Under the pieces are notes generated by a model, which saw nothing but the letters and a program-made list of their open reading frames with translations, searched no databases and was not told where the DNA came from. Positions 6,229 to 51,447 of a DNA stretch of 64,000 nucleotides are shown here, piece by piece. Source of the stretch: Polytrichum commune (lineage: Eukaryota > Streptophyta > Polytrichopsida > Polytrichales > Polytrichaceae); NCBI GenBank assembly GCA_950295325.1, contig OX485806.1, positions 27,156,001 to 27,220,000 on the forward strand, given 5' to 3'. A program made the translations under genes and the position numbers. The first letter of the stretch is position 1; each line of letters starts with the position of its first letter.

Positions 6229-6247
6229 TTAACCCTTAAAAGAGGTT
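6229..6247 (+). repeat. piggyBac left end: TTAA plus 15-bp inverted repeat
   Basis: TTAA at 6229-6232 is followed by CCCTTAAAAGAGGTT. The opening CCC directly after TTAA is the usual piggyBac form. A subterminal palindrome follows at 6274-6291 and may be a transposase binding site (inference). Confidence 0.93.
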
Positions 6248-6299
6248 GCCCCTTGTTGGTGGGTGCATGTAGAGCCCCAGTATTTTGGGGCAGAGGTGC

Positions 6300-7109
6300 A
6301 TTTGGCTGCCTCTATAGACAGCTACCTGTATCCCACTTGATTGCAACTTTTTTGTGAGGGTGGGCCCCGAAGTGTGGATGATAGCGGAGAAGTTCTTTCT
6401 TGAAATGTATATGCTTTGAATTACTGTTACATTTCCAACTCCGATGGGGTGCGGTTGGGTTGTGGAAATGGAGTACGTATCCGAACCGCATGTATACGGT
6501 CTGTGGTGGGTACTAGACGTACGCTGGACGCAAGCTGGGGTGCGTCCTTTCTGTCCGACGTCACGCCAAACAGGGAGTCATCCAGTGCCTTTCGTGACCG
6601 GGTCAGCCTGTATCCTACTCCAACCGTTCTGTGAGGTGACCTAATGGACAAGGACCATGTGCCACATGGACCAATGGGGTTCGACTTCTGCAGAGTGGCG
6701 TGAGGTGAGTCCATGTCCCACGACAGCGGCATCAGAAACAGTTATGTCTGTGCATATATCTGCGGCACGCTGGTTTCGGTGCGTGACGGCTATGCAAACA
6801 CTCTGCATTCAGGTTGCGATGCGACATTTCAGATGTGCAGGAAATGACTTTACATATTGAAGTTGAATACAAATGTTACATGCCAAACTGCAAGTGATTT
6901 CAGTGCCAAAATACAGTGATCCGTGTTGTGCCTCCGGGATGGCAGCACTCTGGCTCTCAGCGCTATGCCGGAACAAAATCCCATATAAGTACGAGCTATG
7001 TCCAAAACTACACAAATTCTTTGTGTTCGCTCGAGCTACATCTCGCAGCTACGTGCCTGAACTATGTACAAACCGTGTCTTCACTGTGTCTCCAGCGACG
7101 CCCACCCGT
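6300..7109. other. piggyBac left subterminal region
   Basis: This GC-rich stretch lies between the left inverted repeat and the stop codon of the B3 exon. Open frames occur on both strands but overlap one another and lack domain signals. It probably contains the 3' untranslated end of the B3 gene and terminal cis-acting sequence. Confidence 0.4.
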
Positions 7110-7546
7110 TCACAGCTTCGTGACCTCGAATTGATCATCACCAACCAGAGTGAAGGTCACCGTGTCGCCGATCTTCAGTTCATTGGCGGTACAAAACCCC
7201 GCCCAACCCAAAGTGAAGCAGCAGATCGTCTGCTTGCCAAACGTTCGCGTTGCAGTCTTCACGTTCCATGGCATCAGCGGGCCGTGTAGAGTGTACCAAA
7301 TGCCGTCGAACCGCTCCACTCCATGAGTGCGCCAGAACAACGTTGGGACATCCTGCGCCCACCCCCTTGCACTTACAATTCACGAACTGTGTACCAAATA
7401 CCCTAGAACGCCAGAATGAATGACGACAATTCCGTGACAGGGGGGGGAATAATATAGGCACAAAATTTCAAGCCTACCTTTACGGCAGTAGATCCGTCAG
7501 CAAACCTGCCATCAGGGGAAGAGGATTCAAGGCCAAATCTAAATTC
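7110..7546 (-). CDS. B3 DNA-binding-domain gene, two 3' exons, carried in piggyBac
   Basis: B3 domains are sequence-specific DNA-binding domains of plant transcription factors (ARF, LAV, RAV and REM families). The last exon, 7352-7110, encodes 80 residues ending in TGA. Its second half carries the typical B3 pattern: a Gly-Trp followed by a Phe and a Cys, then ANELKIGDTVTFTLVG and a closing FEV strand. The first half (VPTLFWRTHG, then WYTLHG and PWNVK) fits the B3 N-terminal part. The preceding exon, 7546-7478 (69 bp, phase 0 at both ends, acceptor TTTCCAG, donor GTAGGC), joins in frame. More exons are expected upstream on the minus strand, but I could not place them with confidence. It has the same orientation as the transposase and lies downstream of it. 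It may be captured host sequence or an accessory protein of the element. The REM-like assignment is tentative. Confidence 0.72.
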
Positions 7547-7559
7547 CTGGAAATAGATG

Positions 7560-9990
7560 GCACTTCTTCATTACAGGAGGACACAGACTGTCATATACGA
7601 AAATCACGGTAGGGCACATAGACCAATCAACACCGACACTGGAAGTCACTAGTGAATGCGGTTCATTGATTCATTGATTGACTGATTCATTGAAACACAA
7701 ATTTAACGTAAATATAATGTGTATGCAACAATAACAAGGGACATATGGCACTCACCAGTGTTCCATAAACTACAGAATGTCCCCTCGTGCATAAGCTGTT
7801 CGTCCGAGGGAGCGGTATGGAGCAAACCAAATGATCAGAACAATATGATCAAGCAATAGTTGATAAGTATAGATAAAAGTGTGAACCCTGTCCCTAACTA
7901 AACTCAGCACATATATCATATATAAAACCTCCAGTCAGAGCAAACATACATGTAGAATAATTGATGAAGAGATTTGTGCTGGTATTTATGGACTAACTCT
8001 GTGATTAAACACATATGTCTAATCGTCATTGACACATATTGCTTTGTTTCCACTTCCATAGGTTATAGGTGGTGCTAAGTATGGATGCAATACACACAGC
8101 TCAGATGAAATATCATTTCAAAACGTGTTAGGGTTTTGGGCAAACCACCACCTGTCCCATCTAACTACACCCCCCGAACAACAAATCGTACGTACCTGAG
8201 GCGGTGCATAGCGTTGCTTATAAATCTCCCGAGCTTTCAATTAGCACTCGTCTATGAGAGTGACATCCCCTACCGAACACCGACCAAGGTGCTCGCATGT
8301 GCTGCTACTCTGAGCACGATCATGTTTGGCACAACTTTCACTGCAATTAACCCCAAATAATCCCAATCAAGCAGCCAGTCTATATCCATTCCTTGCCTAA
8401 AAAGCTTGACAAGAAAGAGCACATAGCTTTTGTCAGTCTTTAAAATCGGCCAATCATTTACATCCAGTTAATGCCACCACTTGAGGGTATTTGGATCTGA
8501 AATCTCATTCTCACCATACACAGCCACAGTTGGGATACAATTTTAGTCTTTGGTTGATAAGATCTGTTGCAGCTGCCTTCCTGTGTGACAAAGTTGCCAA
8601 AGTCAGCCAACAATGCAAATTCACAATGCCAGTGCCGTGGACCCACAGCAAAAACCCGCTGTCATTGAACAGCAAATGAGAACCATAACTAATAAAATCT
8701 CCACACACCTGGAGGGTTAGTGCAACCCTGTGAACGGAAAGGACCCCATGCACAATGTCTACAATACCTATTCTGAACTACAAATTTGACCAAGGGTACA
8801 AGTACTCTCCAAAGCAGTATATCAGCCCAATTGCTATTACAAGCACATAATTGGGGAATGGATTTTGTGCATGATAAATTACCAGTAGCAGTCAATAAGA
8901 TTGTATGGGCGGTGAAGCTCCTCAAACACATGCTGCGCTCCTCCAACACTGTCGGCGACTGATGGCAAACTTTGGTTGCTCTCTGCAAATTCACATGACC
9001 AGAAATGGTTGAGGACCGATGGCAAAAATAACCGGTAATTGTGCTTCAAATTTAGACTTATCAAGTACATCAGGTAGCCCGTCAGTGAGTCACTATACAT
9101 TATGATATCCAGCGGCCAAAAGGGCAGGCGAATGGACTTCTTCTCACAACAAGGTCGTAAACCAGAAATAGTCTGCCACTATCACACTCACATTTGTAAA
9201 GGCCCGCGCCAAAATGATGTTCACATCCACATTGGTGTAACACCTCGGGACGATCTGTGAGACGTGGCCCACGCGCAAATTATCTGCACATAAATTGGAA
9301 GCCCACGACATAAGAGATGAGCAGTTATTCTACAGGCACCAACTGCCCAAGAAACCTATGACATGAAGGTGCGAACCCACTGGAGTGCATATGCCGATCC
9401 CACGGATAGAATAGCATAAGAACTCGTGACACCTTAGGCAAACATAACAGACGAAACGGCTACAACAGAACACATGAGGTAAACATTTACAATGGAGTGC
9501 ATTTACAAGCAGAAATGGTGGCCTAAGTACAAACAAAGACGTGACAGAGGAAGCTCTCCTAGCCGTCAAAAAGGGCCTTGACTGAGTCACTATGGTCCGT
9601 CATCAAGGCCAAAAAGTTTCCTAAGGGAGTCCAGAAGCGCATCGAGGACACTAAAAAGGATGGGTGACGGAGCCCAGGCGATCCGCAGGGGCCTGTTCGT
9701 CTACGACTAAGCCGGCAGTGAACACTCCAATGTCACCTCTGCTCCGGATATGATATGTCCAGCAAAAAATCAAAAACTCGCGACGCATCGGACGCCAAGC
9801 ACAGTTCATATTGAGGATACTCAAAGCGACCAACGGCGGAATCGGTCTGGGATTGTTTGTCCGCACTGGCTCTTCGCGGAATCCACGACCACGGGGAGAT
9901 CCACACGCGCTTCAATCCACGTCTGCTGCGAAGCTCCTTCCTGTACCAACATCACACTTCTCACACATATCAGATGTGAGACAAGCACCC
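7560..9990 (-). other. piggyBac interior between B3 exons and transposase
   Basis: This is the transposase 3' region and presumably introns plus 5' exons of the B3 gene. Several short open, splice-bounded stretches occur on the minus strand (for example about 8513-8583, following a CACACAG acceptor and ending at GTGAGA, and about 8880-9100), but none shows a recognisable domain. I found no second mobile element here. Confidence 0.4.
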
Positions 9991-9996
9991 CCCAAA

Positions 9997-12794
9997 CTAT
10001 AAGCTCTCGTGATGTGCCTGGTAACAGGATTCCGGGCACATCCACTTGTTTCCGCAAGAGGTGCAGAACCACTTCTGCACCCGGCCACAGATCACACAGC
10101 TGCGCTTTAATTTTGACCGCCGCAGCGTGTGGACAGGGAGGCGGCGTCGAGGTCTTCGTTCAGGGGGGACACGAACTCCTTGGCGGGCATGTATCGCCTG
10201 CATGGCAAGGTGCTTGCCGACCGCGATCTTGAAGGCCAGATGTGAGGTTACGGGCAATCCGAGGTCTTCCATTTGCTTCACCCAACACACGTATGAGTTC
10301 ACCATTGTCTGGTCCACGATGAGGTGGAAAATTTTCACCCACCACTTGTGGCACCTCAGCTGCGATGAATAGTTGCCACGGAGCTGATCCGTGACATCAA
10401 CTCCGCGCATGTACTCGACGTACTGCCGGTGCATGGGGGAGGATGGCACCATCAACTGCCCTGGAAGTCCCGGTATTCGTCGAAGGACCTTACTATTCGG
10501 CTCCCACGGGGCGGCTGCGGTGCTCAACAGGGTCACCAGCTTCTTGTCCTGCCAGGACACGACGCCCATTTGGCGATGGACATGATTCCATATAACCATG
10601 GACCCCCTGACAGTAGAGTCAGGCTCCCGATACAGACCACCAGGCAAGTTTTTGCTGGTGCGTCGAACAGTACCCGTGGCCCATATCCCCTTGCACATTA
10701 GCTCATGAAACAGGTTCACACTTGCGAAGAAATTATCAATCACCAAACAGTGCCCCCGGTTCTCCAATCCCCTCACCATCCGTTCGACCACGTGGTAGCC
10801 CAAACCATGAGGCCCTGCCCCTGTTCCTTCACCGAAGTAGACCTCCATCTGCCAGACAAACCTGCTCTTGGAGCTCGCCAACAACCACACCTTAATCCCA
10901 AACCTCACAGGCTTGTCCGGCATGAATTGCCTAATGAAACAATAACGGCCTTTGTAGGGGATGACACACTCATCCACAGTTATCTCCCTCTCGAGATTGT
11001 AAATATCTTTTGAAACGTTTACAAACATTTCAACAAGCCATCGTGTCTTCGCAATCCTGTCAAACCTAGGGTCACTCACATCCCTCACTATGGTGGAGTT
11101 ATCTACTAGATGCAAACAACGCATTATCTGCTCCCACCTCCCTAGCGACATGATGGACGAGATAAGAGAACAATACAAGAATGGCTGGCTACGCATCCAA
11201 TACTGCCTCACGCTTGGGAGCCTTTTGCATCCCATGAGGATACAAATCCCCAACCACCCCCGAATGTCAGTTCCATTCACATCCTTCCACGCCAGGCCCC
11301 CCTTTGTGCGTGGCAACTCATTATCAGTAGGAGGCAAAACTGCCCTCGCATACCTGTTGGTCTCTAGTACAATTCGATCCACACAGGCATCAGTCCAGTA
11401 CAATTCAAAAACCGAATGTGGTAGAGGAATTCCCGTGGGTCTAGGGCACTTCAAACCTGGCGTCGGGCCCGTGAAGTTGTCACGGGTTCTAACGAAGTCC
11501 ACGCTGCTCGAATTCCAAGACTCCTTCCTGTAGTATTCAGCCAGCTGAGCAGTATCCATGTGCACGGGTGTGAATGAGTCCGGGCTCATGCACCACTGTT
11601 CGAGGCCAGGTGAAGGGGGTTTACTCTCATCCAAATTGTCGACATCGAAATCTGAGTCTGAGCTCTCAATGGTGTCACAAAACTCGGGTAGCCACTCTTC
11701 GCCACTAGAGTCCGCCGACAATATTCCCGTCTCAACCCCACCGGCGGTTTGCACTGATGTGTTAGAGCAATGCAGATATTCGGGGAGCCCAAGACTTACC
11801 TGCGGAAAAGTGTCTCTTGCTGTCGAGTCTTGAGTACCATCGACCCCCTCAGTATCGGAGGGGGCATCGTAATCCGCGATGGGGCAGCCTCCTGGAATTT
11901 CGGGTATCACCTCCACGTCGATGTTTTCAGCTACACACTCCGTTAGGCCCGGCCCGGTGCCACTCCCCACTCCGCTCGCATTCTCTCCCAAAAGCCCGCT
12001 GTCACTCAGTCCCGCGACTGCCCCTCCAAGAACACCGACCGAGTCAGGCACGGGGCTGAAGCAATGCTGCCTCTTCCACCAGCCGTAACCGTGGCCCCCC
12101 TCGCTTCCGTAGGCACGCACCTCTGGCCCATCTGCAACGCGGACGTTCTCCTCATTCAGGTGGCACTCTCTGTCATACCCCCCTAGGTCACACAGCACCA
12201 TCCTCTTGCCAGTAGAGGCATGCACCCCCTCCCCGATTACATCCCCCTGCGTCCAAGAAGGTGTGTCGCCAGTGTGGAAAGAATGCTCACTCAGAAATCT
12301 ATTCGGAACAAGAACGGCCCATCCAGCCCGCCTACAACTCCACTGGACATACGTCCCTTGGAAGCGGTCCTGCATAATACCAACCTCAAGAAGAACCGGC
12401 CTCTCCAACGACCCGCCTGGATGTGTAGCGCCGAAGCCCGTGTGCTTTGAAATTGGAGCTGATGTCCTCCACGCGTCGTCGCGGAACACGGACTCCCAGA
12501 GGTTGACATTTAAGGTATCCATGCTGCCAAGCGAATGTTGCGATTCAGGCGCCACAATGTCGTCCAGGCCCACATACCCTTCAACGTCCCCCAACACCTC
12601 CCAGATTGTGTCGTCGTTCACCCTTTGCTGCTCGTACTCTGCTACTTGCATTGCCAAGGCGCGCGTCCGAACACCATCAGTGAGGTTGGGCTGGAGTGCT
12701 GGCGGCATCCATGCACGCGGTCTCCTGGGCTTGGACCACACAAGCTTGCCCTTCTCCTCCCGCGTTCGTCTTGCACTTGCACCCCGCTGTCCAC
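9997..12794 (-). CDS. piggyBac transposase, catalytic exon
   Basis: This encodes the DDE transposase (DDE_Tnp_1_7 family) that cuts and pastes the element at TTAA. One open frame of about 930 codons runs to a TAG at 9997-9999. The catalytic core starts near 11480. The acidic residues match piggyBac D268, D346, D447 and D450: an ITVDEC motif (Asp codon 10972-10974), a VIDNFF motif (10735-10737), and a GVDVTDQ motif whose two Asp codons are 10396-10398 and 10387-10389. Their spacing of 79, 113 and 3 residues is close to the 78, 101 and 3 of the family type member. The C terminus (about 10009-10098) is a Cys/His-rich zinc-binding domain with CxxC, CxxC, Cx3C and a final HH. About 430 acidic, low-complexity residues precede the core. 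There is no in-frame ATG at the front. A good splice acceptor (pyrimidine tract then CAG) places the exon start at 12794, so it is an internal-to-terminal exon. Confidence 0.96.
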
Positions 12795-13539
12795 CTGCAC
12801 AGCGACGGAACAGTCACACTTGCTCATGCCCAGATGAAGAGATTGCACATGCAACAGCCACACTTGCTCACGCAAAATTCAGGAGATTACACATGCCACA
12901 GTCACACATTCTTACAATGCAAAATTGACAAGATTACACATGCCACAGTCACAGTTGCTCAAGCCTAGATGAAGAGACTGCACATGCAGCAGCCACAGAT
13001 GCAAACAATGAAAAATTGACGAGATTACACATGCCACAGTCACAATTGCTCAAGGCCAGATGAAGAGATTGCACATGCAGCAGCCACACATTCAAACAAT
13101 GCAAAATTGACAAGATTACACATGCCACAGTCACAGTTGCTCAAGCCCAGATGAAGAGACTGCACATGCAGCAACCACAGATGCAAACAATGGAAAATTG
13201 ACGAGATTACACATGCCACAGTCACAGTTGCTCAAGGCCAGATGCAGAGATTGCACATGCAGCAGCCACACATGCAAACAATGAAAAATTGAGGAGATTA
13301 CACATGCCACAGTCACAGTTGTGCAAGCCCAGATGAAGAGATTGCACATGCAGTAGCCACACCTGCTCATGCAAAATTGACGAGGTTACACATGCCACAG
13401 CGACACTTGCTCGCATACCTCTCGAGGAGATTACACATGCAGCAGCCACACTTGCTCATGCACCTTTGATTGTAATTACACATGCCACAGCCACACATTC
13501 TCATGCACCTTTGAGGACCTACCTGGTAACATGACTTAC
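12795..13539 (-). other. Transposase intron filled by a minisatellite
   Basis: The donor GTAAGT lies at 13539-13534 and the acceptor CAG at 12797-12795, giving a 745-bp intron. Nearly all of it is the 91-bp tandem repeat annotated separately. Splicing it out keeps the frame; reading through meets a TGA just upstream of the acceptor. Confidence 0.75.
12830..13515. repeat. 91-bp tandem repeat (dimer of about 45 bp) inside piggyBac
   Basis: About seven units repeat with a 91-bp period. Each is made of two related halves, both containing CACATGC followed by AGCCACA or AGTCACA. Because 91 is not divisible by three, each unit shifts frame, so the Cys-rich reading seen on the minus strand cannot continue as a protein. 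The left-hand units (13375-13515) are shorter and more diverged. Confidence 0.92.
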
Positions 13540-16105
13540 CACGTTCGGGTGCCGGCGTGGAATCAGGAGGTGGAGGCCCGAAATCGTTTGGAGCATCGCT
13601 CTCCGGCATGGGCGTCTGCAGCGTCTGAGGCGTCAGGTTGGACAATCCGCAAGCCGTTGTGGTCACCTTCTTCGATCTCGAGCTCCTGTGTGGTTTCGGT
13701 GTAGTCTCCCCCCCCTCTGCCAGCGCCTTGCACTGCCGCTCCTTCCTCGGGCGTTTCAAGACTGTCTTCGAATGCGTGACGGGAATCTGCGTGCACTGTG
13801 CTATGTCGAACCCCTGTGACGCATCCGCCGAGTGAACCTGGAGCAACGGAGGCACAATTCCCTATCCGGCCAGTCAACGCAAGTGGTGAGAACGTCTGAG
13901 GTACATGAAATGGACAGGGAGGAGGATGGAAACTGAAACCTAAACTCAGCCCTGCGCATCTCACATCAAACCCCATTCACAAATGCCACATCCAAACGGC
14001 CACACCTGCACTTCGTTATGAGCTTCTCACAACCTCACGCAGAGAACAAAGCACAACCAATTATCAGTGTCCGGGTCCTGCTGCTGGAAGCCTAATGCGA
14101 ACTGCACCAACACACCTACATACCCTGGCACTATAACGGTACTTACCTTCCTCGCCCTGGGCATCCGAGGATGCTTTGGCACCGGTGTCGGGTCCACATT
14201 CTCCTTCCTTGTGTCCTGGCCTATCACGCACGCATCCAACCCCCCCTGCAGGGTGTTCCACGACAGCAAACATTTGACTAAGTCCCAGGCGTCCACTACA
14301 ATTTCAATGTCACCAGGGCACAAACATGTCAAACTGTGCACAATGTCCCGGGCAAGTTCAGAAGAAATTGATTGCAATTACCTTGGTCTGCCGTGTCAGT
14401 CTGTGCTTCGGTGTAACACCTCCGCTCTCGGGCGCCGTGAGCGGAAGCTGTACTCCCGCTGGGCATAGCTCCTGGCCATAATTAATATCATCATAAAATC
14501 AATGACCAACATTTCTGCAATGTCTACCTCACTTGGGTTGCCAATTCAGTCTTTAGTTCGTTTGTATGATATGTGCAAGATCTCCTATGTCGACTTGTGT
14601 GATGGATTAATGATAAACTATGCATTAACTAAGAGTGGAATTAGCGACGTAAAGATGTAAAACCCCGAAGGGCATAAAAGGCACATGTGTATTGAATGAT
14701 TACCTTTTTCTGACGCTTCTCAGTGTCATAGGATATAAAACACAGTATGAGTATGTGACAGTTAGCAGATCTGCAGAGGAGGCTGGAGCTGCTATAATTC
14801 CACCATAAAATTCAGACCGCGTATGAAAATCCCGCATTATCAAATTGAGGATTCTAGCTCTCATTAAACGTCTACCCCTTTCGCACCTCTGTGTTAGTGC
14901 ATGACAGGTCTAGGTTTGCAGAAACCATTTAACATTGTTGGTGACATCGTGAATAACAAATATCTTAACAATGCAAGCCACATTTTTCCCGTGTGGATGT
15001 GCTGGAATCATATGGATGCATCAGCAACCACAGAGGTTCACAGTGACACGAGGTTGGAGGCACACAAGTTCAAACTGGGATACTTTTCTACGTTGCATGT
15101 TTGAAAGCCTCGTCTACAGCCCAAAAAACCAGGTAATTATCTTCAACACTGCATTGAATGTGCGCAAGCAATGCATCAGAAAAAATCAAGGGGACACCTA
15201 AGGCTCCGATATGAATTACAGCTCAGCCGAACTATTCCTGGTCTTCACAAATAGGCGGCCGACAACATCGGACATTTAGATCCGCACACCGGTTGGGTGA
15301 CATGAGCCACATGCACAATCGGGTCGTTCACACCAAGCACAAGTGCACTAAACCACACATTTCCCGAACACTGAGCAAATGACGAGCCTCGTTTGCCTAA
15401 ACTCAGCAAGTTCAATCAACCCCAGACCAAAAACACCCACTTAAACCCAGAACCCGGGGCAATGTGTGTCCAAGTGCAGGAGGACTGACCTGCGGAGATC
15501 TGGTCGGCGTTGATCCGGAGCGGTCCTGAATGAGTACCGGCTGTGACCCTCCCCTTGCCTGCCTCGCGAGTCGCTTCATCACAAACAGCCTCCGTCGGAA
15601 AAGCGTGTCCACGCAGAATGCCCGTGACAAGGTCGGGGAACCTCCTGCGATCACACCAACCTAGGATACGAGCCGCGTGCCTGTACCAAAGATAGCGGCA
15701 GCGCTCCTGGACCCCAAATGCGCCTCTCCGATTCCACCGGCTCGGGCGTGGCTGCGCGAGGAGTGTGCTCGCATCCAGGAGTCGAACAGCCCGTGTTGCG
15801 CCTTCCTCTGAAACCCCCTGATCTGCAAACCAGCGCTGCAAGACAGCCTCCACAGAAATGCGTTCAGCGCTCTTACACAACCCACTATTCTCCATGTATG
15901 CTGGTCCCACCCAAGGAAAACTCTTTTGGAATTGCAAAGACAAATCACCTCCAGGAAAACAATCTGGATATACTCCAATCCACCGCCACCAAAACGTCCT
16001 GTCATGAGACCGGGACGCCATTTCCCGCCTATCCGAAAGTCGAGTACCCAAGACGTGGTGGTCACAATCGGAGCAGCCGCCTCTCGAAATCCAACTGCAC
16101 GTCAT
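13540..16105 (-). CDS. Probable 5' exons of the piggyBac transposase gene
   Basis: Three open segments have standard GT-AG borders and reading phases that fit each other and the catalytic exon: 16105-15490 (ATG start, donor GTCAGT, phase 1), 14295-14147 (donor GTAAGT, phase 0) and 13837-13540 (donor GTAAGT, phase 1). The last joins the catalytic exon at 12794 in frame. The four exons would give a protein of about 1,290 residues, twice the usual size for this superfamily. The first segment is rich in Arg, Trp and Cys; the third is basic with many Lys and Arg. I recognise no domain in either. The join 13540 to 12794 is the best supported; the first exon is the weakest and could belong to a separate transcript. 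The intervals between segments are lower in GC, as expected of introns. Confidence 0.55.
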
Positions 16106-16351
16106 GATGCAGCACCTATTCCCGAAACCCTATGCTCGTCCCACACAAGTAAAGCTCCAAAGGGAATTGCAAACACAGTCCACCTACAGGAAAACAGAAT
16201 GGCAATACTCCAATCCGCCCACCACCCAAAACTGCAATGTGATGGCAGCGGCAATTCATTTCCCGCCTGTCCCAACATCGCGTCACCAAGGACGTGGTGG
16301 TCACAATCGTGAGAGTCGCCTCTCCAGATCCAACTCGTCGTCATGATGCAG
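15897..16351. repeat. Direct duplication (about 235 bp) at the transposase 5' end
   Basis: The stretch about 15897-16112 is repeated, with divergence, at about 16130-16351. Both copies end in the same 12 bases GTCATGATGCAG. On the minus strand each copy starts with an ATG and a similar peptide (MTxSWI, then DCDHHVLG). The upstream copy (ATG at 16344) is an 80-codon ORF whose stop overlaps the downstream ATG as ATGA (16105-16102). The upstream copy may act as an upstream ORF or be a leftover exon. Confidence 0.85.
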
Positions 16352-16776
16352 TCCGGATGCCCCTACAAAAAAAATAAAAATCCAAGAACCCTAAACAACG
16401 AGTGGAGAAGGTGGAACGCGAAGCAAAAGCGGGGGAATGCCCGCGCGCTCCCCTTGAGGCACGCCTGCGTCCTTGCAACAACCCCACCGGCCGAGGCGGT
16501 CACCAACGGCCACCAGGAAATACGCACGGTCGCCACGCTGACAGTGCACGCAGTACTACTCTAGCTACCGTATGCTCCAGGAAGACGTAGAAATACACAG
16601 AATCCGTCGCTTATCTCGCGCTGGACATCGCCACAAGGCTCCGAAAATTAGTCTGAAAATAAGGGAGGCATTGTCTAGGTAGTGCCCACATCTCCGTAGT
16701 TCAAAGGTTTGTCCAATTCGGTGAAGGTGGATCACCAGCAGCCCAAATCAATTAACCGTAGGCCATTTTGGCCTGT
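16352..16776 (-). promoter_or_regulatory. Putative transposase promoter and 5' leader
   Basis: This lies between the right inverted repeat and the first ATG-bearing repeat of the minus-strand transposase gene. I see no convincing ORF in it. By position it should hold the promoter and transposase binding sites. I could not pick out a clear TATA box. Confidence 0.4.
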
Positions 16777-16795
16777 AACCTCTTTTAAGGGTTAA
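16777..16795 (-). repeat. piggyBac right end: 15-bp inverted repeat plus TTAA
   Basis: On the + strand this reads AACCTCTTTTAAGGG followed by TTAA at 16792-16795, the exact reverse complement of the left end for 15 bases. The palindrome GGCCATTTTGGCC lies immediately inside at 16761-16773. Confidence 0.93.
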
Positions 16796-26869: not shown

Positions 26870-28505
26870 GAGCCGCTTTACACCTAGAGGCCGGGCCAAT
26901 TCCCCTTGAGGCCGATTGCATGAAATTTCAGCCCCTTTTGGGTTGGAGGCCGGCTTCAACTACACATTATAATAAGATCATAATGGGGGCCAATTTTTCC
27001 ATATGTAAAGGCTTTAGGGCCAAGAAGCTAGGTCGATTCAATAACTCTAGCACAATCTAACGGATCTAGCATAATCTAGCATAAAGTTGTTCATATTTCC
27101 ACATAATCCAATGGATATAATTCATTGAAAAAATCAAATTTTATTTAAAAAAAAGGTTTTATTTTTTTTATTGAAATGTGACGTTGGCCCCGAGGCCAAG
27201 AATTGGCTCTCCATTGTGGGTGCACCCAATTCAACAAGCTCGGGCGGTGTCAGACCATGCATTCTTTGATAAAAAAAATGCATACCACCAAATCGACCCG
27301 GCCTCTAGGTGTAAAGGGGTGGGGGCAGATTTCAGCCTTTTGACTAATCACAAGTGAGGATTTCTAGCCTCTTGGACAACAAATTAGCCCGGCCTCTAGG
27401 TGTAAAGGGGTGGGGTTCGATTTCAACCTTTTAGCCAATCACAAGTGAGGATTTCTAGCCTCTTGCACAACGAATTGGCCCGGCCTCTAGGTGTAAAGGA
27501 ATGGGGGCCGATTTCAACCTTTTGACCAATCACAAGTGAGGATTTCTAGCCTCTTACACAACGATTTGGCCCGGCCTCTAGGTGTGAAGGGGTGAGGTTC
27601 GATTTCAACCTTTTGGCCAATCACAAGTGAGGATTTCCAGCCTCTTACACAACGAATTGGCCCGGCCTCTAGGTGTAAAGGGATGGGGACCGATTTCAGT
27701 CTTTTGACCAATCACAAGTGAGGATTTCTAGCCTCTTACACAACGATTTGGCCCGGCCTCTAGGTGTAAAGGGGTGAGGTTCGATTTCAGCCTTTTGGCC
27801 AATCACAAGTGAGGATTTCTAGCCTCTTACACAACGAATTGGCCCGGCCTCTAGGTGTAAAGGAATGGGGACCGATTTCAGTCTTTTGACCAATCACAAG
27901 TGAGGATTTCTAGCCTCTTACACAACGATTTGGCCCGGCCTCTAGGTGTAAAGGGGTGAGGTTCAATTTCAGCCTTTTGGCCAATCACAAGTGAGGATTT
28001 CCAGCCTCTTACACAACGAATTGGCCCGGCCTCTAGGTGTAAAGGGATGGGGACCGATTTCAATCTTTTGACCAATCACAAGTGAGGATTTCTAGCCTCT
28101 TACACAACGATTTGGCCCGGCCTCTAGGTGTAAAGGGGTGAGGTTCGATTTCAGCCTTTTGGCCAATCACAAGTGAGGATTTCCAGCCTCTTACACAACG
28201 AATTGGCCCGGCCTCTAGGTGTAAAGGGATGGGGACCGATTTCAGTGTTTTGACCAATCACAAGTGAGGATTTCTAGCCTCTTACACAACGATTTGGCCT
28301 GGCCTCTAGGTGTAAAGGGGTGAGGTTCCATTTCAGCCTTTTGGCCAATCACAAGTGAGGATTTCCAGCCTCTTACACAACGAATTGGCCCGGCCTCTAG
28401 GTGTAAAGGGATGGGGACCGATTTCAATCTTTTGACCAATCACAAGTGAGGATTTCTAGCCTCTTACACAACGATTTGGCCCGGCCTCTAGGTGTAAAGT
28501 GGCCC
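26870..28505. mobile_element. Harbinger-like element with terminal-derived tandem array
   Basis: The left end (GAGCCGCTTTACACCTAGAG, then GCCGGGCCAA) and the right end (complement GGGCCACTTTACACCTAGAG, then GCCGGGCCAA) are inverted repeats of about 30 bp. They are preceded by TTA at 26867-26869 and followed by TAA at 28506-28508, a TWA-type site as used by PIF/Harbinger, though the two triplets differ. The right three quarters is a tandem array whose unit contains the terminal repeat itself. No transposase ORF is present, so it is non-autonomous. Confidence 0.75.
27285..28505. repeat. 91-bp satellite-like array with 182-bp higher-order dimer
   Basis: About 13 units of 91 bp each carry GGCCCGGCCTCTAGGTGTAA and AATCACAAGTGAGGATTTC. 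From about 27500 on, two unit types alternate (AACGAATTGG with TTTTGACC, and AACGATTTGG with TTTTGGCC), giving a 182-bp dimer copied several times with almost no change. Minus-strand ORFs of 65 residues repeating through it are by-products. Confidence 0.95.
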
Positions 28506-42969: not shown

Positions 42970-45900
42970 TCAGGTTGTTGGACTGGATTGCTTTCCATCG
43001 CGTTTTTCTCTCTTGACTAAAGAGGAAACCCGTTTCAAGTGCTTTCGCACTTCGTGAAGCAAGCGATGTTCTTTCCAGTAATGCTGAGCTGGAGATACCA
43101 CAAGCTTGGCAGCTCCAGAACCAACAGCATAGAGTGGGCGTATTGGCCCTGCACCTTGGACAAATTTGAACAACTGATTTTGGAAAATATCTTGCAGCCA
43201 TTCATTCAGGAATATCTTAGAAAAGCTGCTCAACCCATGTACACCTTTAGCCTTGACATGCTTTAACTGAAGCTCGATTCCCTACACATCACCACCATGA
43301 CATGAACAAATCCATCAACCACTGCTGGAAGGAAAGTTTGTGGCCGTTATGTGGTCACATGGCCTAATTAGGAACCTATATTTAAGTGGTATATGCAAGG
43401 CTTGTTGTTAAGAACAGACACCAGCCTATGCAAATCACTTGAAGAGAGAGAATCTTCACTTTTTACCCTATAGATTTTGCATCTCAAATCCGACTCTGAA
43501 ACTTGAATTCACTTTTTGTGTGATTTGGTAAAGACAATTCCCAGCCCCACCTAATGGCCAGAATTGTCTGTGAAGTTGGAAGTGCCCACAATAGGGCCAC
43601 ATACCTTACAATCAAATACCTTCAACAAGGAGAACCAAACAAATCCTAGCCAACATGGTAAAAGGTCGTACCTTCCACTGGACCATGTTCACAAGTTCAA
43701 CATAATTGCCTGCTCGTAGGGCTGCGAGGTCCACCCTCCGAGGAAGATAATCCACACGAATGTTGAAAGGTAGCACCTCAAACATCTGCACTCCCATGCC
43801 ATCATCGTTTTGTCAATGATAATTTACAACTTGCAATTTACCTAAATATGTGCCAAAGTGCTTGGATTCCAAACCTGGTCAATGTCAGTCAAGAACTACT
43901 TACCATCCATGAGCACAGTGGCAAATTAAGACGTATTTTGTAAATTCAGACTTACAAGGGACACAGTCAAGACATTCTCTTTGAGGAGAAACGTACATAA
44001 CCCAAAAAAGTACTGTCAAGATTGTCTGAAGTGTGTTGGGTACATGATTATAGCATGCACAATGATTTCACGTACCTGAAAAAAAGGTAGCAAAGGTTCT
44101 GTAGGAGAATCAGTGAGATTAGAGCTGACTGAAGGAGTGGAACTGAGAGAAGATCTGCTTGAGAGGTTCAAATTCTCCTCCAGCAAAGTTCCTTGACCAA
44201 CACCAAATTGTGAAGAGAAAAACTTGGTGCAGAAGTCAAGGTGGCGCTGATCGAGATGGAGTCGAATTGGCAGCAATGCAAAAGACACCCTGTTCAAGTA
44301 TAGTTCAGATAAATTAACAAGGACATGTGGTCGAAAGTGGAGGGCAATACCACAAAATACTTTGTTACTATATATCACTTTGATTATAAACCAACAGAAC
44401 TTGAAATTGCATATAACAACTCGAATCTTAGATCAGGCAGCCAGAGCATTGATATGCACAGCGGTGATAGGAATAAAAGAGATGTATGACACAAAGAGAT
44501 GCATAGGGTGCTTGTTCCCAGCTCATTCTAGACCCTTCCTCGCATATCCAAGAAGAGTTTCCATAGTGAGGGCTCAAACAAATACCTACCTGTATTCTTC
44601 CAAAACATCTGTAGGATCTGGACGAACAGCATCCATGTCAATTTTCAGGGCTTGAGATGATGTCTCTCGCGGTCTAGATGAAACATAGTGATAGCCCATG
44701 ACCTGCAGACAAATAGCATGCCAAAGAAGCCAAATATACGAAACTGTATCAAATTCAAAAAGGTCAAACAATAACAGACACAGGTGGCCAAGTCAGAGAT
44801 GTGTCTGTCAGCACCAGGAGACTTTATAATATTCTCATACTTTAAAACTCTGATGCGCTGGTTTTCAAATTTCCAAAAAACAACCCATTATACAGCAGTT
44901 TCCAACATCTTTGCAATGCAGGATATATGTACAAATAAGAGGGACAAATAACATACCGTTTTCCAAGGTGCATCAGGGCTGCAATCCAGGATGCCAAAGT
45001 TGGAGACTGTCACTGTCAATCTAGAGGCATATAACCCAATTGAAGGGAATGCATCATACTGCACATTGATTCCATTTAAGAAAAATTCTAAGCACACATT
45101 TGGCTTCCGTCCACTATCACCAACTGCTCCTGCCAAGTTCCAATCTGACTCCTCATCACCAAATGGCCAGTCAGATCCTTCATGAAGACGCCATTTCAAG
45201 CTCATGTTCTGCAGAATCATGCGGCCTACTGACTTAGGATATCTCTTTGGAAGACTTGGCTTGACCTCTGGTTTGTCGGCGGGCACATGGTCGTCTACAA
45301 TATTCAAAACACTGTCTTCATACCACCCACCCCCTGAAGCCCCTCCACGGATTGAGGTTCTGGTGGGCTCGCTCACAGATCTTGGAGAGTGTTCAGAGTG
45401 TTCAGAATTCCCACCAGGAGTATGTTCAGAGACATAATCTTCAATGAATTCTTGAATATCCTTGTTACTCAAACCAGAGCTTTCAAGATCCAAAGGCTCT
45501 GATTGCAGATCTCGCAAACTTACAAATGCATTCTCAAGAACACCGTCCAACAAGTCAGGGGTTTCAATAATATCTGCAGCCTTGACTTCCATTTTATGCA
45601 TTTTTATTTGCACACTTTGTTGCTCCATGGGAGGAGCAAAGAGCTGCTGTAATTGGGCTACCAGTCTTTCACAGGCTGCAGTAGTATCATGACAAGTATC
45701 AAAGCAAATCTCATTATTTCCACATTCAACCTCCCATTTCCGGGCATCATCTCCTCCAATCTTGACAGTGACTCCCATGGAAGTCTCTTTAGCAACCTGC
45801 CAACACCAGCACTGATTAATGCTTTAACAGAAAGTATCTCGCATATATATATCACTGCACAGGTACAAATGCGACCTATGAACATTTGACATATAAAGGA

Positions 45901-48900
45901 ATAAAGTGCCAAGTCAACCATGAAACAGCAATGAGGTCCTTCATAGTTAGTAAATCACAAACCTGAACAAATCCTGTATATTGCATAGATTCAGTGGAAT
46001 ATGTAAACTGAGCTTGCTTTTTGAACTCCAGATCCAAGACATGAAGTGCAACATCTCGGAGCCTGACATCATACTGCTCTTGGTTGCTGTCAACACTGTC
46101 GCCACTTGAAATCCGCACAGCAGCAGCAGCCAAAACACATGCAACTGCTGAAGCTTCAGGAGCCTGTAGAGCCTCCAACCCAGGTTCATATCCCAGTGCA
46201 GCATCATGCAAATCCAGTAGACAATACTTCCTTCGTGTGGTCTTCACCTTAGCAGAAGCATCATCAACACTTGAACTGCTTACAGAGTTTGAAGCATCAG
46301 AAGGATCAAAGAAAGACATGACCGCAGTGATCCACTCAAGATGGCCACCATAGGCAACAATTGTACATCCCTTCACGTTTCCAATCACAAAATCATCTGC
46401 CAGTCTTTCTTTACCAGGCCATGCCACATAAGTGACAGTAATACCCGCAGTCCCAACCGCAAGGACATTTCCACCTCCTCCATTTCCACGCTGTAAAGCA
46501 CTGTTTCTACAAGCAAAAAGGAGAATCTCCTCCGTGTCTCCTTGTAATGGTGATAACCATGTGTCAGGCGGGGATCCTGACACTTGACATTCTTCATGGC
46601 GCACCCGTAAGTAAGATGCATCACCTTTACCCCCCATTTGCACAACAGACAGCACCTGTATTTGCACCATTTGCGCACTTCAGTCAAAGCACATTGACAA
46701 GACAACAAATAGGACGCATATCACATTAGATTGACCCTAAGCCACATAAATAAACAACTACATATACATGAAGTAAATATCAAAAATTAAGAGTAACCTC
46801 CACAAAAGCAGAGCCCATGTGTGCTGTGCCTATAAGGCACAGAACTGCAGGAGAAGCACAAAAGCTTACATATCTGGAAAAAAAATCATAATGTGTCATA
46901 AAAAATTTCAAAGTTTGCAGGCCCAAAAGGAGGCTTCATGCTTCACCTGTGTTTTATGAATGTCAAAATGTAAAATATCCCAATGCTTTGACCCTTCATT
47001 CAGAGCTTCAGAGATATCACTCAGGTCAAGTATCATGTCCAAACGACCACATTTCACAAGCACCGACATCTGTGGGACTTTATGTCCATCTTGAGCTGGA
47101 ATTGCTTCACAGTTTGGGGATGAACTTTTGCTGTGCTCATCAACAGTAAACAGCTTCGCGCTTGTCAAAAAAGAGAACAGCTCAATCAGCAATAAGTACT
47201 GAGATCTTGATATATGCGCAACAACCAAGGGTAACCTGACTTGGACAACAGTTGCAGAAGATTTGAGCAACTTCTCCCTCAGCTGCGAATCTGCTTGCTC
47301 TGCAGCCTCTGCAGAAATGGCTGCCACAAATTCAAAATTACCACCACCAATTCCACCACCGCCATCACCTCTTCTTTTCTGTGCAACAGCAACATCCCAT
47401 GCCTGTTTTGGTATCCAAGGGCCTGTCTCAGCTAACCGGTTCCATGCAACCTCCACTGACGCATCCAACTCTCCATGTTGCTTGATTTTCAGAACCTCAA
47501 CGGTTTGAAGGTCATCTTGATATGATAGTTCCCCATCTTGAGACTTCACTGCATTCGGGATTATGAACAGAGTGGCCTCTTCAGTCCCAAATACCAATGA
47601 ATCACCATCAGGAGTCGATGTACTTAGCAGTTGCATATCCACAGAAGGTGATCTCAGATCCAGTACAAAGAAAGTCCTCTGAACTGCACACTCAGGTACT
47701 GTTTGCACGCAGGGAACATATGTAATAATCCGAGCAGATGAGATAGATGTAGTCAAGTGTATGGAAGTTGTAATTGCTACATTCTTGGTATCTCCACTGC
47801 AAGAACCTTGTTCCGACAATCCAGAACCCGAAACCTCCTCAACAATGTGGACAATCCGCTCCAAGCTATCAATATCGAGCCATGCAATAAGAGGCTGAAT
47901 CTTTGTGTCGATATCCATGCTCCATGATCCCTCCGAATCGCCACTTTTGTTCCCTCCATGGCTGTAAGATTTCAAATTGACCTGAATACCCTGATTTGTC
48001 TGAAATGAGGTCACCCTTAACAACTGCTTCCTTTCTGCCTTTTCAGAGCTTACATCTTTGCAGAAGGTCCTAGAAAAGGTTACATCCTTCGCACGAGGGA
48101 AAAGTGTAACACCACATTGGGGTAATTTATCTTCAATAAGGTTAGAAAGCTCCATGCATGTATCAGGTTTTGTACTCTGTAAAGTATCATCTGCATCTTG
48201 ATTCAAATTCTGTTGTGCAAGTTCCCAGAGCTCCATGCTTTCCACAGTAAGACTCAGATCCATCTTCTTTTCAGACATCTGGAAGAAAGAAACATTGGAC
48301 ATGTCAGAAAGCTTAGAAGCCAATCAAAAATAATTTGCTACTTCCTATCTTTTCGTTTGTATCAATAGAGCTTGATATGTCTTAAGTACATAGAATCTGC
48401 ATACAGCTGACAATAACCAACACTATCACAGAAACTCTATAGAATGATGACCCTTGGTCAGGAGCAAGTCTATACAGTGAGGTGCATGCACAAGTATAAA
48501 TCAAAAGGGCACAAAAACTTGTTCTGACAACTCTGTAAACAAGCTTGTAGTTCATAAGGCACAAAGTTGTTGAATGCTCACCGCCATGGACAAAATGGTT
48601 CCTGCAAGACGCATATGCAAACTATCTTTGCATCCTCCCTGATCACCAGAAGCATGCTCCTTCTTGTGGTCTTCATAAGCAACCTCCACTGAAATGCTGA
48701 CAAGTCTTGCTTTCACACTGTATTCGACTTGCTTCCATGCATCTACAAAACACATCCCAAACTTCAAAACCAACTCCATTTTTAGGAAGATAAAGTTACT
48801 GTACCACTAAAGTGAGGTGACTGCACCTTGCAGTACCACTGCCAATTCACATTATACCGTGTTTAGGGAAAGATGGTCCAGACTCCAGACAATACAAATT

Positions 48901-51447
48901 TGCAAGCTAAGTTTACAGGAACTAAAACCAAACAAAAGTGCACCCAGCTCCTGTCAACTTTGAGCTGGGTATACAGGTCATAACCAAACAAACATAACTA
49001 ATGAACCTCTTCTAAATACGAAAGAAAATATTCAAGGGCATACCAGTGGCTAGAAGCATAGAACCTGTATCCAAGCACTCGAAGAACTCATCCACACTGC
49101 AACCATCCCAGAAAAGCAAATTATGAGTCAAACTAGCTGTGAATCTTTACAAAACCATGGTATATATTCTAAGCCTCACCTCCAAAAGTATATTCTTATG
49201 GCAACTGGGAGAAGATATTGTAATGAGCACAAGAGTAGCAGGATAGGGCCAAAAGAATGACTAGGCATGAAATCTATTCTTGAAGCTCAACTAAACAAAC
49301 AACAGAGGTAGCTGACAGTTTCCTATACCTGGCAGCAAGGTCTGCCTCTGCCATATCCACTGGGATTTTTTGGTCATCAGCCCCTCCCCACCTCATCCAA
49401 TCTGAAATCAAGTTGGTTGCTGGCAAGAACACTGAGCTGCCAGCCACACCTCCCTCACCTCCAGCCACTGATCTTGAAGACAACATGTCCACAAGCCTCT
49501 CTAGACGTTCACCTCTCTTCTCAAGGGCTCGGGCTGTACCTTCCATTGCCCGCTTACTGCTACTTATAGATTGGATCAAGCCAAGGAGCTGTTGTATCCT
49601 CCAAACAGACCCAGATACTTTGAAAGGCTGAACCAGAAACTCAGTATTGATTTTGGGTATATCTAAAGACCCTTCCCTCAAAGGAATCCTTAATTGGATG
49701 GAGCCCAAAACTCCTCCTCCGTCTGCTCCTGTTAGTACTGGTACTACATGATCTGTAATATATTTGGGTGTCACTTTCTCCCCTGTATTGCTAACTGGCA
49801 GCAATCCAACAGTAACTCCTCTAAATCTCACATTTTTCACGATGACATTTGATTCTGGCCCTTTACCCTGAGAATGTATGTTATCATTGCCATACTCCAC
49901 ATATCCAGCTCGGATTAAAAGTGTGCACGGCGACACCTTTGAACACTGCAATCATCCAAACAGTCCGGTGTCGAGGAATTGTTAGTGCAAGGCTATTCAC
50001 AATCTTTAAGTACTGCAACACCCTGCTCCACAAATAGAGAGCAATATCCACACTCCATTTTCAAACAGTGGGCTATGAAACACACCTCACACCATGAAAG
50101 ACATGACGGGATTGGGAGAGCAAGACTCATGAAGGTCTGCAGGGTTTATGTGAACGACACAACCATTCTAATCGACCTAGTTCACATGATCCATCATGTT
50201 TGATTACCTCCTGTGGTGGCTTTTCCAGAGTAATTGTCAAATTTGAGACTTTGACACACAACCCTGCAACCCTCTGCTCCACAAAATAGAGGGCAATATC
50301 CACACTCCATTTTCAACCAGAGGGCTATGTATCAACCACCCCTGACACCATGAAAGACATGAAGTGATTGGACTAACATACGTAATCAAGGTCTGCAGAG
50401 TTTAGATGACACCACAACCATCCCAATTGACCTAGTTCACATGATTGTCATGTTTAATTGACTCCTGTGGTGGCTGTTCCAGAGTAATCGTGAAATTTGA
50501 GATATTGACACACAACCCTGCAACATTTTGGTCCACAAAATAGAGAGCAATATCCACACTCCGTTTCAACCAGAGGGCTATGTATCAACCACCCCTGACA
50601 TCATAAAAGACATGAGGTGATTGGAATAGTAAACCTCGTGAAGGTCTGCAGGGTTTAAGTGAACAACACAACCATCCCAATTGACCTAGTTCACGTTGAT
50701 CATCTTGTTTGATTTTTACCTCCTGTGGTGGCTGTTCCAGAGTAATTGTCAGATTTGAGACTTTGACACACAACCCTAGAAGCACTTTCTCAACAATTTG
50801 TGCAATTGCCCGAACCCCGACTTCGATGTCCATGTAAGCGGTATCAGCTCCACCGCCCAACGCTCCCCCCACATCCGCTTCACTGCCTTCCGTGGTTGAA
50901 CTATTCCCCGTGCCGCCTGCTGAAACCCTAGAGTTGTCGTCCTCTCCATTATCCGACTTCTTCCCAGGCCGGCAACGAGGCACGAGAACAAGCTCCAGGC
51001 CGTGAATTTGAACCTCACAAGGCTGATCCCGGCTGAAAACACTCCACAGATTCGTGGCAATAACGCTGCCAACCAACCCCTCCTTCACCACCACGGGCGA
51101 CGCTTCTCCCAACTGCGGGCAATTCACCAAACCACAACCAAATTTAACACATTTTAATTACTAAATTAATGAAAAAGCCCAATCGCACCATAATTTCCAC
51201 AGAAACACGGATGGTCCCCGTGGCAACCACTACCGCCACAACGCTCGTCCATTGCACACCACAAACTACAAACCCTAACCTGATCGTTGAAGTAATTGGT
51301 ATTCAACGCGAGATCCTTGAGGTGGATGGTCCCGGAGCCGATCTGCACATCAAGTTGCTCCATGTCCAATTCGTTGCGGAGGATCCTCCCAAGCAGGTGC
51401 TTCATGGCGAATTTCACCACCCGCTTGGTAAGCCATTGGGGAATCAT
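42970..51447 (-). CDS. ATG2: Autophagy-related protein 2 (ATG2), 12 exons
   Basis: ATG2 is a long lipid-transfer protein that bridges the endoplasmic reticulum and the growing autophagosome membrane, working with ATG9 and ATG18. Exons read on the minus strand with matching phases: 51447-51280, 51112-50720, 49945-49329, 49096-49044, 48742-48582, 48278-46947, 46655-45963, 45796-44957, 44702-44590, 44289-44076, 43785-43672 and 43281-42970, about 1,670 residues. The ATG start at 51447 gives an N terminus with a chorein-type pattern (ELDMEQLDVQIGSGTIHLKDLALN). Plant ATG2 hallmarks follow: SVDEFF in exon 4, SALQRGNGGG in exon 7, RPRETSSQALKIDMDAVRPDP in exon 9, and VDYLPRRVDLAALRAGNYVE in exon 11, the conserved ATG2 C-terminal domain. 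The frame ends at TGA (42972-42970), about 150-200 residues short of plant ATG2 proteins as I recall them. It may be a 3'-truncated allele, or the final exons may be unrecognised. Confidence 0.9.
50020..50785. repeat. Triplication (period about 255 bp) spanning exon 2 end and intron 2 of ATG2
   Basis: Three tandem copies lie in intron 2, the third including the real end of exon 2 (50720). Each copy carries 56 bp matching the last part of exon 2. Copy 50263-50208 keeps both a CAG acceptor and the GAG/GTAATC donor. In copy 50517-50462 the donor GT is lost. Copies share the motif CTCCTGTGGTGGC and the phrase TTCACATGATC with small changes. Confidence 0.9.

What the first reader, a model, noticed from the sequence alone, without database searches (positions are those of the whole stretch)
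6233..16791. Complete 10.56-kb piggyBac transposon in a plant genome
Perfect 15-bp inverted ends, TTAA on both sides and all four catalytic aspartates in an open catalytic exon point to an intact, possibly active piggyBac element. As far as I recall, piggyBac is well known in animals but rarely described in land plants, and this one is two to four times the usual size.
Basis: partly seen in the sequence, partly recalled or inferred. Interest (0 to 1): 0.92.

Follow-up and report, generated by a model that had tools for sequence, protein, structure and literature searches.

The report
Plant piggyBac carrying B3 regulator gene
The element is a real piggyBac "jumping gene" in a land plant, and its family carries a second gene, a plant-type DNA-binding regulator that looks captured from the host, which this particular copy has partly lost.

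Summary
A 10,559-bp element (6233-16791) has perfect 15-bp inverted ends inside TTAA and an open 938-aa exon carrying the DDE_Tnp_1_7 (piggyBac) domain (E 1e-68). It belongs to a family. In the host's 408-Mb genome the 15-bp end plus a following purine occurs 25 times, each time beside TTAA. Nine compared copies are old relative to one another (median dS 0.70) yet under purifying selection (median dN/dS 0.13). One pair differs by 1 base in 3,765, with homology ending exactly at TTAA, so the family moved recently.

Between transposase and left end the family encodes a 268-271-aa protein with two plant B3 DNA-binding domains. It has three exons and is uninterrupted in 6 of 9 copies modelled, with dN/dS 0.29-0.42. 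The window copy keeps only its last exon, so "complete, intact" holds for the ends and the main transposase exon only.

I read this as a two-gene piggyBac that recruited a host REM/VRN1-like regulator as an accessory factor, perhaps for anti-silencing or transposition. The function is inferred and untested. I found no B3-bearing piggyBac in the library searched.

The parts
6229..6232 (.). left TTAA target-site copy
   Evidence: 25 of 25 genome places of the end, searched without TTAA, have TTAA
6233..6247 (+). left terminal inverted repeat CCCTTAAAAGAGGTT
6229..6733 (.). left terminal/subterminal block shared with several family copies
7110..7352 (-). exon 3 (with stop codon) of the second gene: second half of B3 domain 2; exons 1-2 not found in this copy
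   Evidence: PF02362 E 3.2e-9, 37.1 bits against cut-off 30.1; 16 strong genome matches, all 884-1258 bp from an end of this family
7438..8292 (.). stretch standing where the nearest relative (L059 1658-3710) holds exons 1-2 of the second gene; no homology beyond an 11-base chance match
10000..12813 (-). main transposase exon, 938-aa open frame (stop at 9997-9999; true exon start probably near 12794, inferred from a splice-acceptor-like site)
10291..11421 (-). DDE_Tnp_1_7 catalytic domain; aspartate codons at 10972-10974, 10735-10737, 10396-10398 and 10387-10389
10003..10098 (-). C-terminal cysteine-rich zinc-binding-like domain
   Evidence: invariant C/H columns; Pfam only a sub-threshold B-box hit (E 0.38)
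12835..13455 (.). 91-bp tandem array (6.8 copies) in an inferred transposase intron
13532..13857 (-). conserved block, upstream transposase exon (inferred)
14142..14478 (-). conserved block, upstream exon(s) (inferred)
15491..15895 (-). conserved upstream exon starting with ATG; unknown domain, mean column identity 76% in 8 copies
   Evidence: no Pfam match
16285..16795 (.). right terminal/subterminal block shared with family copies, including palindrome GGCCATTTTGGCC at 16761-16773
16777..16791 (-). right terminal inverted repeat
16792..16795 (.). right TTAA target-site copy

Best explanation
The element is a member of a long-lived, low-copy piggyBac family of a land plant (bryophyte-like by marker genes) that moves by cut-and-paste into TTAA. 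The family is a two-gene element: a multi-exon DDD transposase and, downstream on the same strand, a 3-exon gene for a small protein with two B3 DNA-binding domains. Shown: the ends, TTAA, the transposase domain, the second gene, a consistent splicing model for it, selection on both genes, and recent movement of one sublineage. Inferred: the B3 gene was captured from the host's REM/VRN1-like B3 family and serves the element as a DNA-binding accessory factor. That factor would act at the element's own promoter or subterminal DNA, to counter silencing and raise transposase expression (my first guess, about 0.35) or to help assemble the transposition complex (about 0.25). The window copy has an open main transposase exon and perfect ends but lacks exons 1-2 of the B3 gene, so it would depend on other copies for that protein if the protein is needed. 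The confidence below is for the two-gene element with a useful second gene, not for either specific role.
For: PiggyBac identity. Family: 37 ends with at most 1 mismatch form 16 opposed pairs by my pairing, of which 14 elements were read in full, window included. Transposase domain: at least 118 matches in the genome, 0 of 14 control genomes (the only control genome I saw named is a cyanobacterium, so this control may say little about eukaryotes). Main exon: among the 30 best loci, 9 copies of this family have open frames over 850 aa (two loci of another family set aside); 36 pairs, dS 0.40-1.00, dN/dS 0.10-0.17. Neutral decay of the window exon leaves no stop in 16 of 200 runs at 0.02 changes per site, 1 of 200 at 0.05 and 0 of 200 at 0.1, so it was under selection until recently. 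Second gene: exon 3 matches B3. Of 24 genome matches the 16 strong ones all lie 884-1258 bp from a family end and 13 of 16 lie within 8 kb of a transposase match; the 8 weak ones (E 1.5e-4 to 9.6e-4) lie more than 4 Mb from a family end. A GT-AG splicing model gives 268-269 aa in 5 of 8 copies tried and 271 aa in one more. Two B3 stretches per protein, E 1.3e-18 and 9.8e-15, in the two copies scanned. 15 pairs of the 6 copies, dN/dS 0.29-0.42, dS 0.28-1.37. Recent movement: the 3.9-kb and 11.9-kb elements on C6 share 1675 and 2090 bp with 0 and 1 mismatch, homology ends at the TTAA boundaries and flanks differ.
Against: The window copy itself has no near-identical relative among the copies compared, so its own recent movement is not shown. 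Not all copies need the B3 gene in cis: C7_20.35 keeps a 947-aa transposase frame and has no second-gene match at E below 0.01, and the window copy lacks exons 1-2. No element-wide repeated motif that a B3 protein would bind was found: for CATGCA none of 9 elements exceeds the largest of its 60 shuffles, though two come close (window 22, largest 22; C2_62.69 18, largest 19), and a k-mer search gave nothing convincing. The splice sites were sought as GT and AG, so their consensus is partly by construction; the open frame across both joins is not. There is no expression or binding evidence. B3 hits to solved structures are weak (TEM1, VRN1, RAV1 at E 0.17-0.39).
Confidence: 0.8

Rival explanations
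1. Ordinary piggyBac with passenger cargo: the B3 gene is a captured host fragment with no role for the element, copied along with it.
For: Capture of host genes by plant transposons is well known (review PMC13317346, one passage and the start of its abstract). The gene is absent or truncated in two copies with open transposase frames (C7_20.35, window). Its dN/dS (0.29-0.42) is weaker than the transposase's (0.10-0.17).
Against: Six uninterrupted frames with the same two introns persist across dS up to 1.37, with dN/dS well below 1 in all 15 pairs; a neutral passenger would have decayed. Exon 3 lies at a similar distance from a family end in all 16 strong genome matches.
Confidence: 0.17
2. 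The B3 protein serves the element by acting on the host, for example by altering reproductive or germline expression in a REM-like way so that the element is transmitted better.
For: The host has a large B3 repertoire (114 PF02362 matches, element exons included, many in clusters by eye), and tandem B3 is the REM/VRN1 arrangement (recalled).
Against: No target or expression data. The protein consists of little more than the two DNA-binding domains, with no other domain recognised by Pfam.
Confidence: 0.1
3. The window element is a domesticated, host-serving copy rather than a transposon, preserved because the transposase is useful.
For: An open 938-aa frame under strong constraint with no close relative among nine compared.
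Against: It keeps perfect 15-bp ends and TTAA, as do its relatives, and the family moved recently. Domesticated transposases usually lose their ends (recalled).
Confidence: 0.05
4. Contamination or assembly chimera.
For: G+C is higher inside (0.45-0.54) than just left of the element (0.37-0.39) and just right of it (0.39), though other parts of the window also reach 0.45-0.49.
Against: Family ends sit on 6 of the 7 large contigs, the ends are exact, and the DNA of the element holds no N.
Confidence: 0.01

Closest known systems
piggyBac superfamily (T. ni piggyBac, Myotis piggyBat)
   Different: 10.56 kb instead of about 2.5 kb (recalled); long N-terminal part and probably several exons; family carries a second gene with tandem B3 domains; land-plant host
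Arabidopsis VANDAL elements with VANC anti-silencing genes (PMC5735166, PMC10398659; starts of abstracts only)
   Same: a plant DNA transposon whose second gene encodes a DNA-binding protein; working analogy for anti-silencing
   Different: VANDALs are Mutator-like (passage); VANC is not described as B3 in what I read; repeated target motifs in non-coding DNA were not found here
Plant two-gene transposons: MuDR (mudrB), En/Spm (TnpA), PIF/Harbinger (Myb-like ORF); protein names recalled, additional coding sequences in MuDR, CACTA and PIF/Harbinger noted in PMC9033089 section 6
   Same: transposase plus accessory gene
   Different: different superfamilies and (recalled) different accessory folds
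REM/VRN1-type B3 transcription factors
   Same: two B3 domains in one small protein, PF02362 above cut-off in both copies scanned
   Different: encoded inside transposon ends; the 8 matches of exon 3 outside the family are only 31-49% identical over 37-78 of 81 residues
Teratorn (piggyBac fused with a herpesvirus, medaka; PMC5601938, search listing only)
   Same: piggyBac that gained large extra gene content
   Different: there a viral genome, here one plant regulator gene

Membership tests
piggyBac superfamily | DDE_Tnp_1_7 transposase domain over curated cut-off | tested here: met
   232.7 bits against cut-off 22.4
piggyBac superfamily | catalytic aspartates | tested here: met
   three invariant in 9 of 9 rows (D614, D693, D806); the fourth (D809) present in the window protein and in 8 of 9 rows
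piggyBac superfamily | TTAA target duplication | tested here: met
   25 of 25 genome places of the exact end plus purine, searched without TTAA
piggyBac superfamily | C-terminal cysteine-rich zinc domain | tested here: met
   by sequence only: C906, C909, C917, C920, C930, H935 invariant in 9 rows; no structure made
piggyBac superfamily | seamless excision and transposition by the encoded enzyme | not testable with these tools
   needs an excision assay; recent copying only inferred from sequence
B3 superfamily (second gene) | PF02362 over cut-off | tested here: met
   67.2 and 54.8 bits against 30.1, two stretches each, in the 2 of 6 uninterrupted copies that were scanned
B3 superfamily (second gene) | B3 fold and DNA binding | not testable with these tools
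VANC-type anti-silencing gene | repeated short target motif in the element's non-coding DNA | tested here: inconclusive
   CATGCA exceeds the largest shuffle in 0 of 9 elements; k-mer search in 11 elements without a convincing motif
VANC-type anti-silencing gene | loss of methylation on related copies | not testable with these tools
   needs methylation data
Pack-type passenger capture | captured gene decays without constraint | tested here: not met
   dN/dS 0.29-0.42 in 15 of 15 pairs of 6 uninterrupted copies; 3 of 9 copies modelled are broken

The most novel reading that the evidence does not exclude
A land-plant piggyBac lineage domesticated a host transcription-factor module (tandem B3) as an essential second gene that binds the element's own DNA and overcomes plant silencing. 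This would be a two-gene piggyBac and a plant-specific solution to how this otherwise mostly non-plant superfamily survives in plants. The window copy would then be a defective partner that uses the B3 protein of other copies.
Probability: 0.35. Interest if true: 0.88.

Novelty: new variant of a known kind. Interest (0 to 1): 0.74.

Why it matters
PiggyBac is a major genome-engineering tool and is usually thought of as an animal element with one gene (recalled). A two-gene, recently moving family in a land plant gives a natural plant-adapted system to study. It also makes testable whether transposons recruit host DNA-binding domains to evade silencing, as the unrelated VANDAL elements do with VANC. 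The host genome seems to hold at least three further piggyBac families (31-43% identical to the window protein), so the superfamily's scarcity in plants may be a matter of which plants were examined.

Tried and rejected
RY-motif idea: the 91-bp array in the window copy contains CATGCA, the classic B3 target (recalled). Counts in 9 elements against 60 dinucleotide shuffles each: the window 22 (mean 12.7, largest 22), C2_62.69 18 (mean 11.5, largest 19), C4_24.13 15 (mean 10.4, largest 20), the other 6 at or below about their means. I dropped it as a family feature. A k-mer search for VANC-like motifs in 11 elements was not convincing. The bZIP-like hit in one copy (21.7 bits, cut-off 22.3) was not pursued. 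TAL-effector hits in the structure search have no stretch passing on its own; taken as artefacts and ignored. Viral contigs: no relative of the catalytic part. Naming the host: a literature search on assembly size gave nothing useful and one on Polytrichum gave nothing decisive (listing only). Markers point to a bryophyte-like land plant, but the moss PDB entries are named from memory, and one LEAFY position speaks against a Physcomitrium-like moss (see full report). The conserved upstream exon could not be folded because the predictor was full.
Full report
What was checked. The window has one 19-nt perfect inverted repeat, TTAACCCTTAAAAGAGGTT, at 6229-6247 and 16777-16795, with no other match up to 3 mismatches in the window. 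The element between the TTAAs is 10,559 bp. On the minus strand an open frame of 938 aa (10000-12813) carries the piggyBac transposase domain PF13843 (E 1e-68). It aligns with solved piggyBat and with the transposase of entry 6x67, recalled as T. ni piggyBac. All four aspartates are present in the window protein; three are invariant in a nine-row alignment and the fourth is present in eight of nine rows.

The host. The window is part of a 407.8-Mb assembly of 64 contigs, of which seven (C1 to C7, 77.9 to 42.1 Mb) hold about 406 Mb. It carries LEAFY-family genes (4 matches) and the chlorophyll a/b-binding family (58 matches), so I take it for a land plant. One LEAFY exon scores 201 bits against 4bhk and 181 against Arabidopsis LEAFY. 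One light-harvesting protein scores 482 and 480 bits against 8htu and 7xqp and 447 or less against the other single chains with a passing stretch; a 620-aa chain ranks above them but no stretch of it passes on its own. I recall 4bhk, 8htu and 7xqp as Physcomitrium patens; no call named the organism. Against a Physcomitrium-like moss: at one position of the LEAFY domain, where 4bhk has D, the host has H like Arabidopsis, a site I recall as separating moss from other LEAFY types. The host is thus probably a bryophyte or another non-flowering land plant, but it is not identified. The window also holds part of an autophagy gene ATG2 (PF13329, E 2.7e-19).

The family. The TTAA-plus-15-bp end occurs exactly 25 times in the genome with 0 in the backwards control. 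With at most 2 mismatches there are 65 against 15 in the control. Searched without TTAA (15 bp plus a purine), the same 25 places are found and no others (control 1), so all 25 have TTAA. The 37 ends with at most 1 mismatch make 16 opposed pairs and 5 single ends (my pairing of the list). I read 14 of the 16 elements in full, window included; they span 0.85 to 18.3 kb. Of the other two, a 33-kb pair on C7 was not read as an element and the C1 pair was fetched in part (L059). Nine of the 13 others hold the main transposase exon in whole or part, at about 77-83% DNA identity to the window in the aligned pieces. The two ends differ from each other beyond the repeat. One carries a palindrome block like GGCCAAAATGGCCTACGGT in all 14 elements, with small differences. 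PF13843 has at least 118 matches in the genome and none in 14 control genomes; those controls may all be prokaryotes.

Age and activity. Nine family copies among the 30 best transposase loci have open frames above 850 aa; two loci of another family were set aside. In the 36 pairs of these nine, dS is 0.40-1.00 and dN/dS 0.10-0.17. Random mutation of the window exon leaves a stop-free frame in 16 of 200 runs at 0.02 neutral changes per site, 1 of 200 at 0.05, and none of 200 at 0.1. So the window exon was under selection until recently although its nearest relative among the nine is at dS 0.40. This is the pattern of several low-copy lineages each kept alive, not of one burst. Recent movement is seen on C6. 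An 11.9-kb element and a 3.9-kb deletion derivative 3.7 Mb away share 1675 bp with no mismatch and 2090 bp with one. The homology ends exactly at the outer TTAA on both sides and the flanks differ.

The second gene. A conserved block at window 7106-7365 translates on the minus strand to half of a B3 domain (PF02362, 37.1 bits, cut-off 30.1). Searching the genome with it gives 24 matches. The 16 strong ones all lie 884-1258 bp from an end of this family, and 13 of the 16 within 8 kb of a transposase match. The 8 weak ones (E 1.5e-4 to 9.6e-4) lie more than 4 Mb from a family end and are probably host B3 genes. Other copies show the missing part. Exon 1 starts with ATG, exon 2 holds most of B3 domain 1 and the start of B3 domain 2, and exon 3 holds the rest. 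Of nine copies tried, six give an uninterrupted 268-271-aa protein (five of eight, one). Three do not: C3_14.61 has a shifted frame and a stop, C3_28.56 has a stop in exon 2, and in C2_24.04 exon 3 is split; for the last two my script found no full set of splice sites. The sites were sought as GT and AG, so their consensus is partly by construction, but the open frame across both joins is not. Two of the six proteins were scanned with Pfam and each has two B3 stretches (E 1.3e-18 and 9.8e-15). In 15 pairs dN/dS is 0.29-0.42 with dS 0.28-1.37. The gene is on the transposase's strand, between the transposase and the left end.

The window copy. In the 14-element set, exon 3 is found in 11 (window included), exon 2 in whole or part in 10, and exon 1 in 8; the window has neither exon 1 nor exon 2. 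Its nearest relative (L059) has all three. Homology to the window stops at 7438 and resumes at 8292, and exons 1-2 of L059 lie in just that gap; a sensitive search of the gap finds only an 11-base chance match. So this copy has good ends and a good main transposase exon but a truncated second gene. C7_20.35 keeps a 947-aa transposase frame and shows no second-gene match.

How it probably works. Transposition at TTAA by the DDD transposase is the known piggyBac route and all sequence requirements that could be tested are met. For the second gene, persistence of an uninterrupted, constrained frame in lineages separated by dS above 1 argues that it benefits the element. A protein of little more than two DNA-binding domains most likely binds DNA. 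By analogy with VANC of VANDAL elements (PMC5735166 and PMC10398659, starts of abstracts; PMC13317346, one passage) I favour anti-silencing or self-activation, with a role in the transposition complex next. A passenger without function is the main rival. Evidence against a simple self-binding story: no repeated motif was found, and two copies with open transposase frames lack a whole second gene. That B3 domains are a plant speciality, and the REM/VRN1 comparison, are recalled.

What is known. A 2022 review of land-plant elements (PMC9033089; section 6 part 1 and passages read) gives six TIR superfamilies; the listing counts zero mentions of piggyBac in it. A fern genome paper (PMC6890710) has a PiggyBac row in its repeat table (passage), a MITE review (PMC10004981) lists PiggyBac among angiosperm MITE groups (passage), and a paper on the PiggyMac zinc domain (PMC8086355) says piggyBac-like elements occur in plants (passage). 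Searches for piggyBac with B3 domain, transposase and plant gave 0 papers. B3 with DNA transposon and transposase terms gave 8 papers, 7 listed, none of whose titles or abstract beginnings describes a B3 gene inside a transposon. The 2026 review of gene capture by plant elements (PMC13317346) has no hit for piggyBac or for B3 domain. All this covers only the open-licence library.

Verdict. Observation confirmed, interpretation partly supported, and a second gene found that makes this a new variant of piggyBac. Its function is unproven.

Noticed in passing
L029-L033 (G000 C2:7057557, C4:26413857, C1:11754775, C1:43458170, C3:11875899): A second piggyBac family: five loci with a 564-aa open frame each, 98-99.9% identical over 2.9-4.1 kb. 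The ends were not reached, so segmental duplication is not excluded; it may be the most recently spread family here.
   Followed up: partly
L043, L051, L052; L046: Third and fourth, more distant piggyBac families with open frames of 667 to 1,125 aa and 783 aa.
   Followed up: no
G000 C2:33995626-33996474 and C2:10589544-10591197 (L011, L028): Short elements of 0.85 and 1.65 kb with both family ends and no transposase match, MITE-like derivatives.
   Followed up: partly
window 12835-13455: 91-bp tandem array of 6.8 copies in an inferred transposase intron. The corresponding interval is only about 0.1 kb in C6_41.60.
   Followed up: partly
window 27297-28499: Another tandem array, also of 91-bp period (13.2 copies, 182-bp higher order), outside the element.
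   Followed up: no
window 44888-49951: Autophagy gene ATG2 on the minus strand: PF13329 in the frame at 44891-45823. Three neighbouring frames gave no Pfam hit, so their link to ATG2 is inferred.
   Followed up: partly
L023 4246-4377 (-): bZIP-like match just below cut-off between transposase and second gene in one copy (21.7 against 22.3 bits).
   Followed up: no
window 15491-15895 (-) and alignment A1: Strongly conserved upstream exon (mean column identity 76% in 8 copies) with no Pfam match; may be a new N-terminal domain of the transposase.
   Followed up: partly
G000 C5:1751760-1846160: Cluster of 14 light-harvesting protein matches with identical scores.
   Followed up: no
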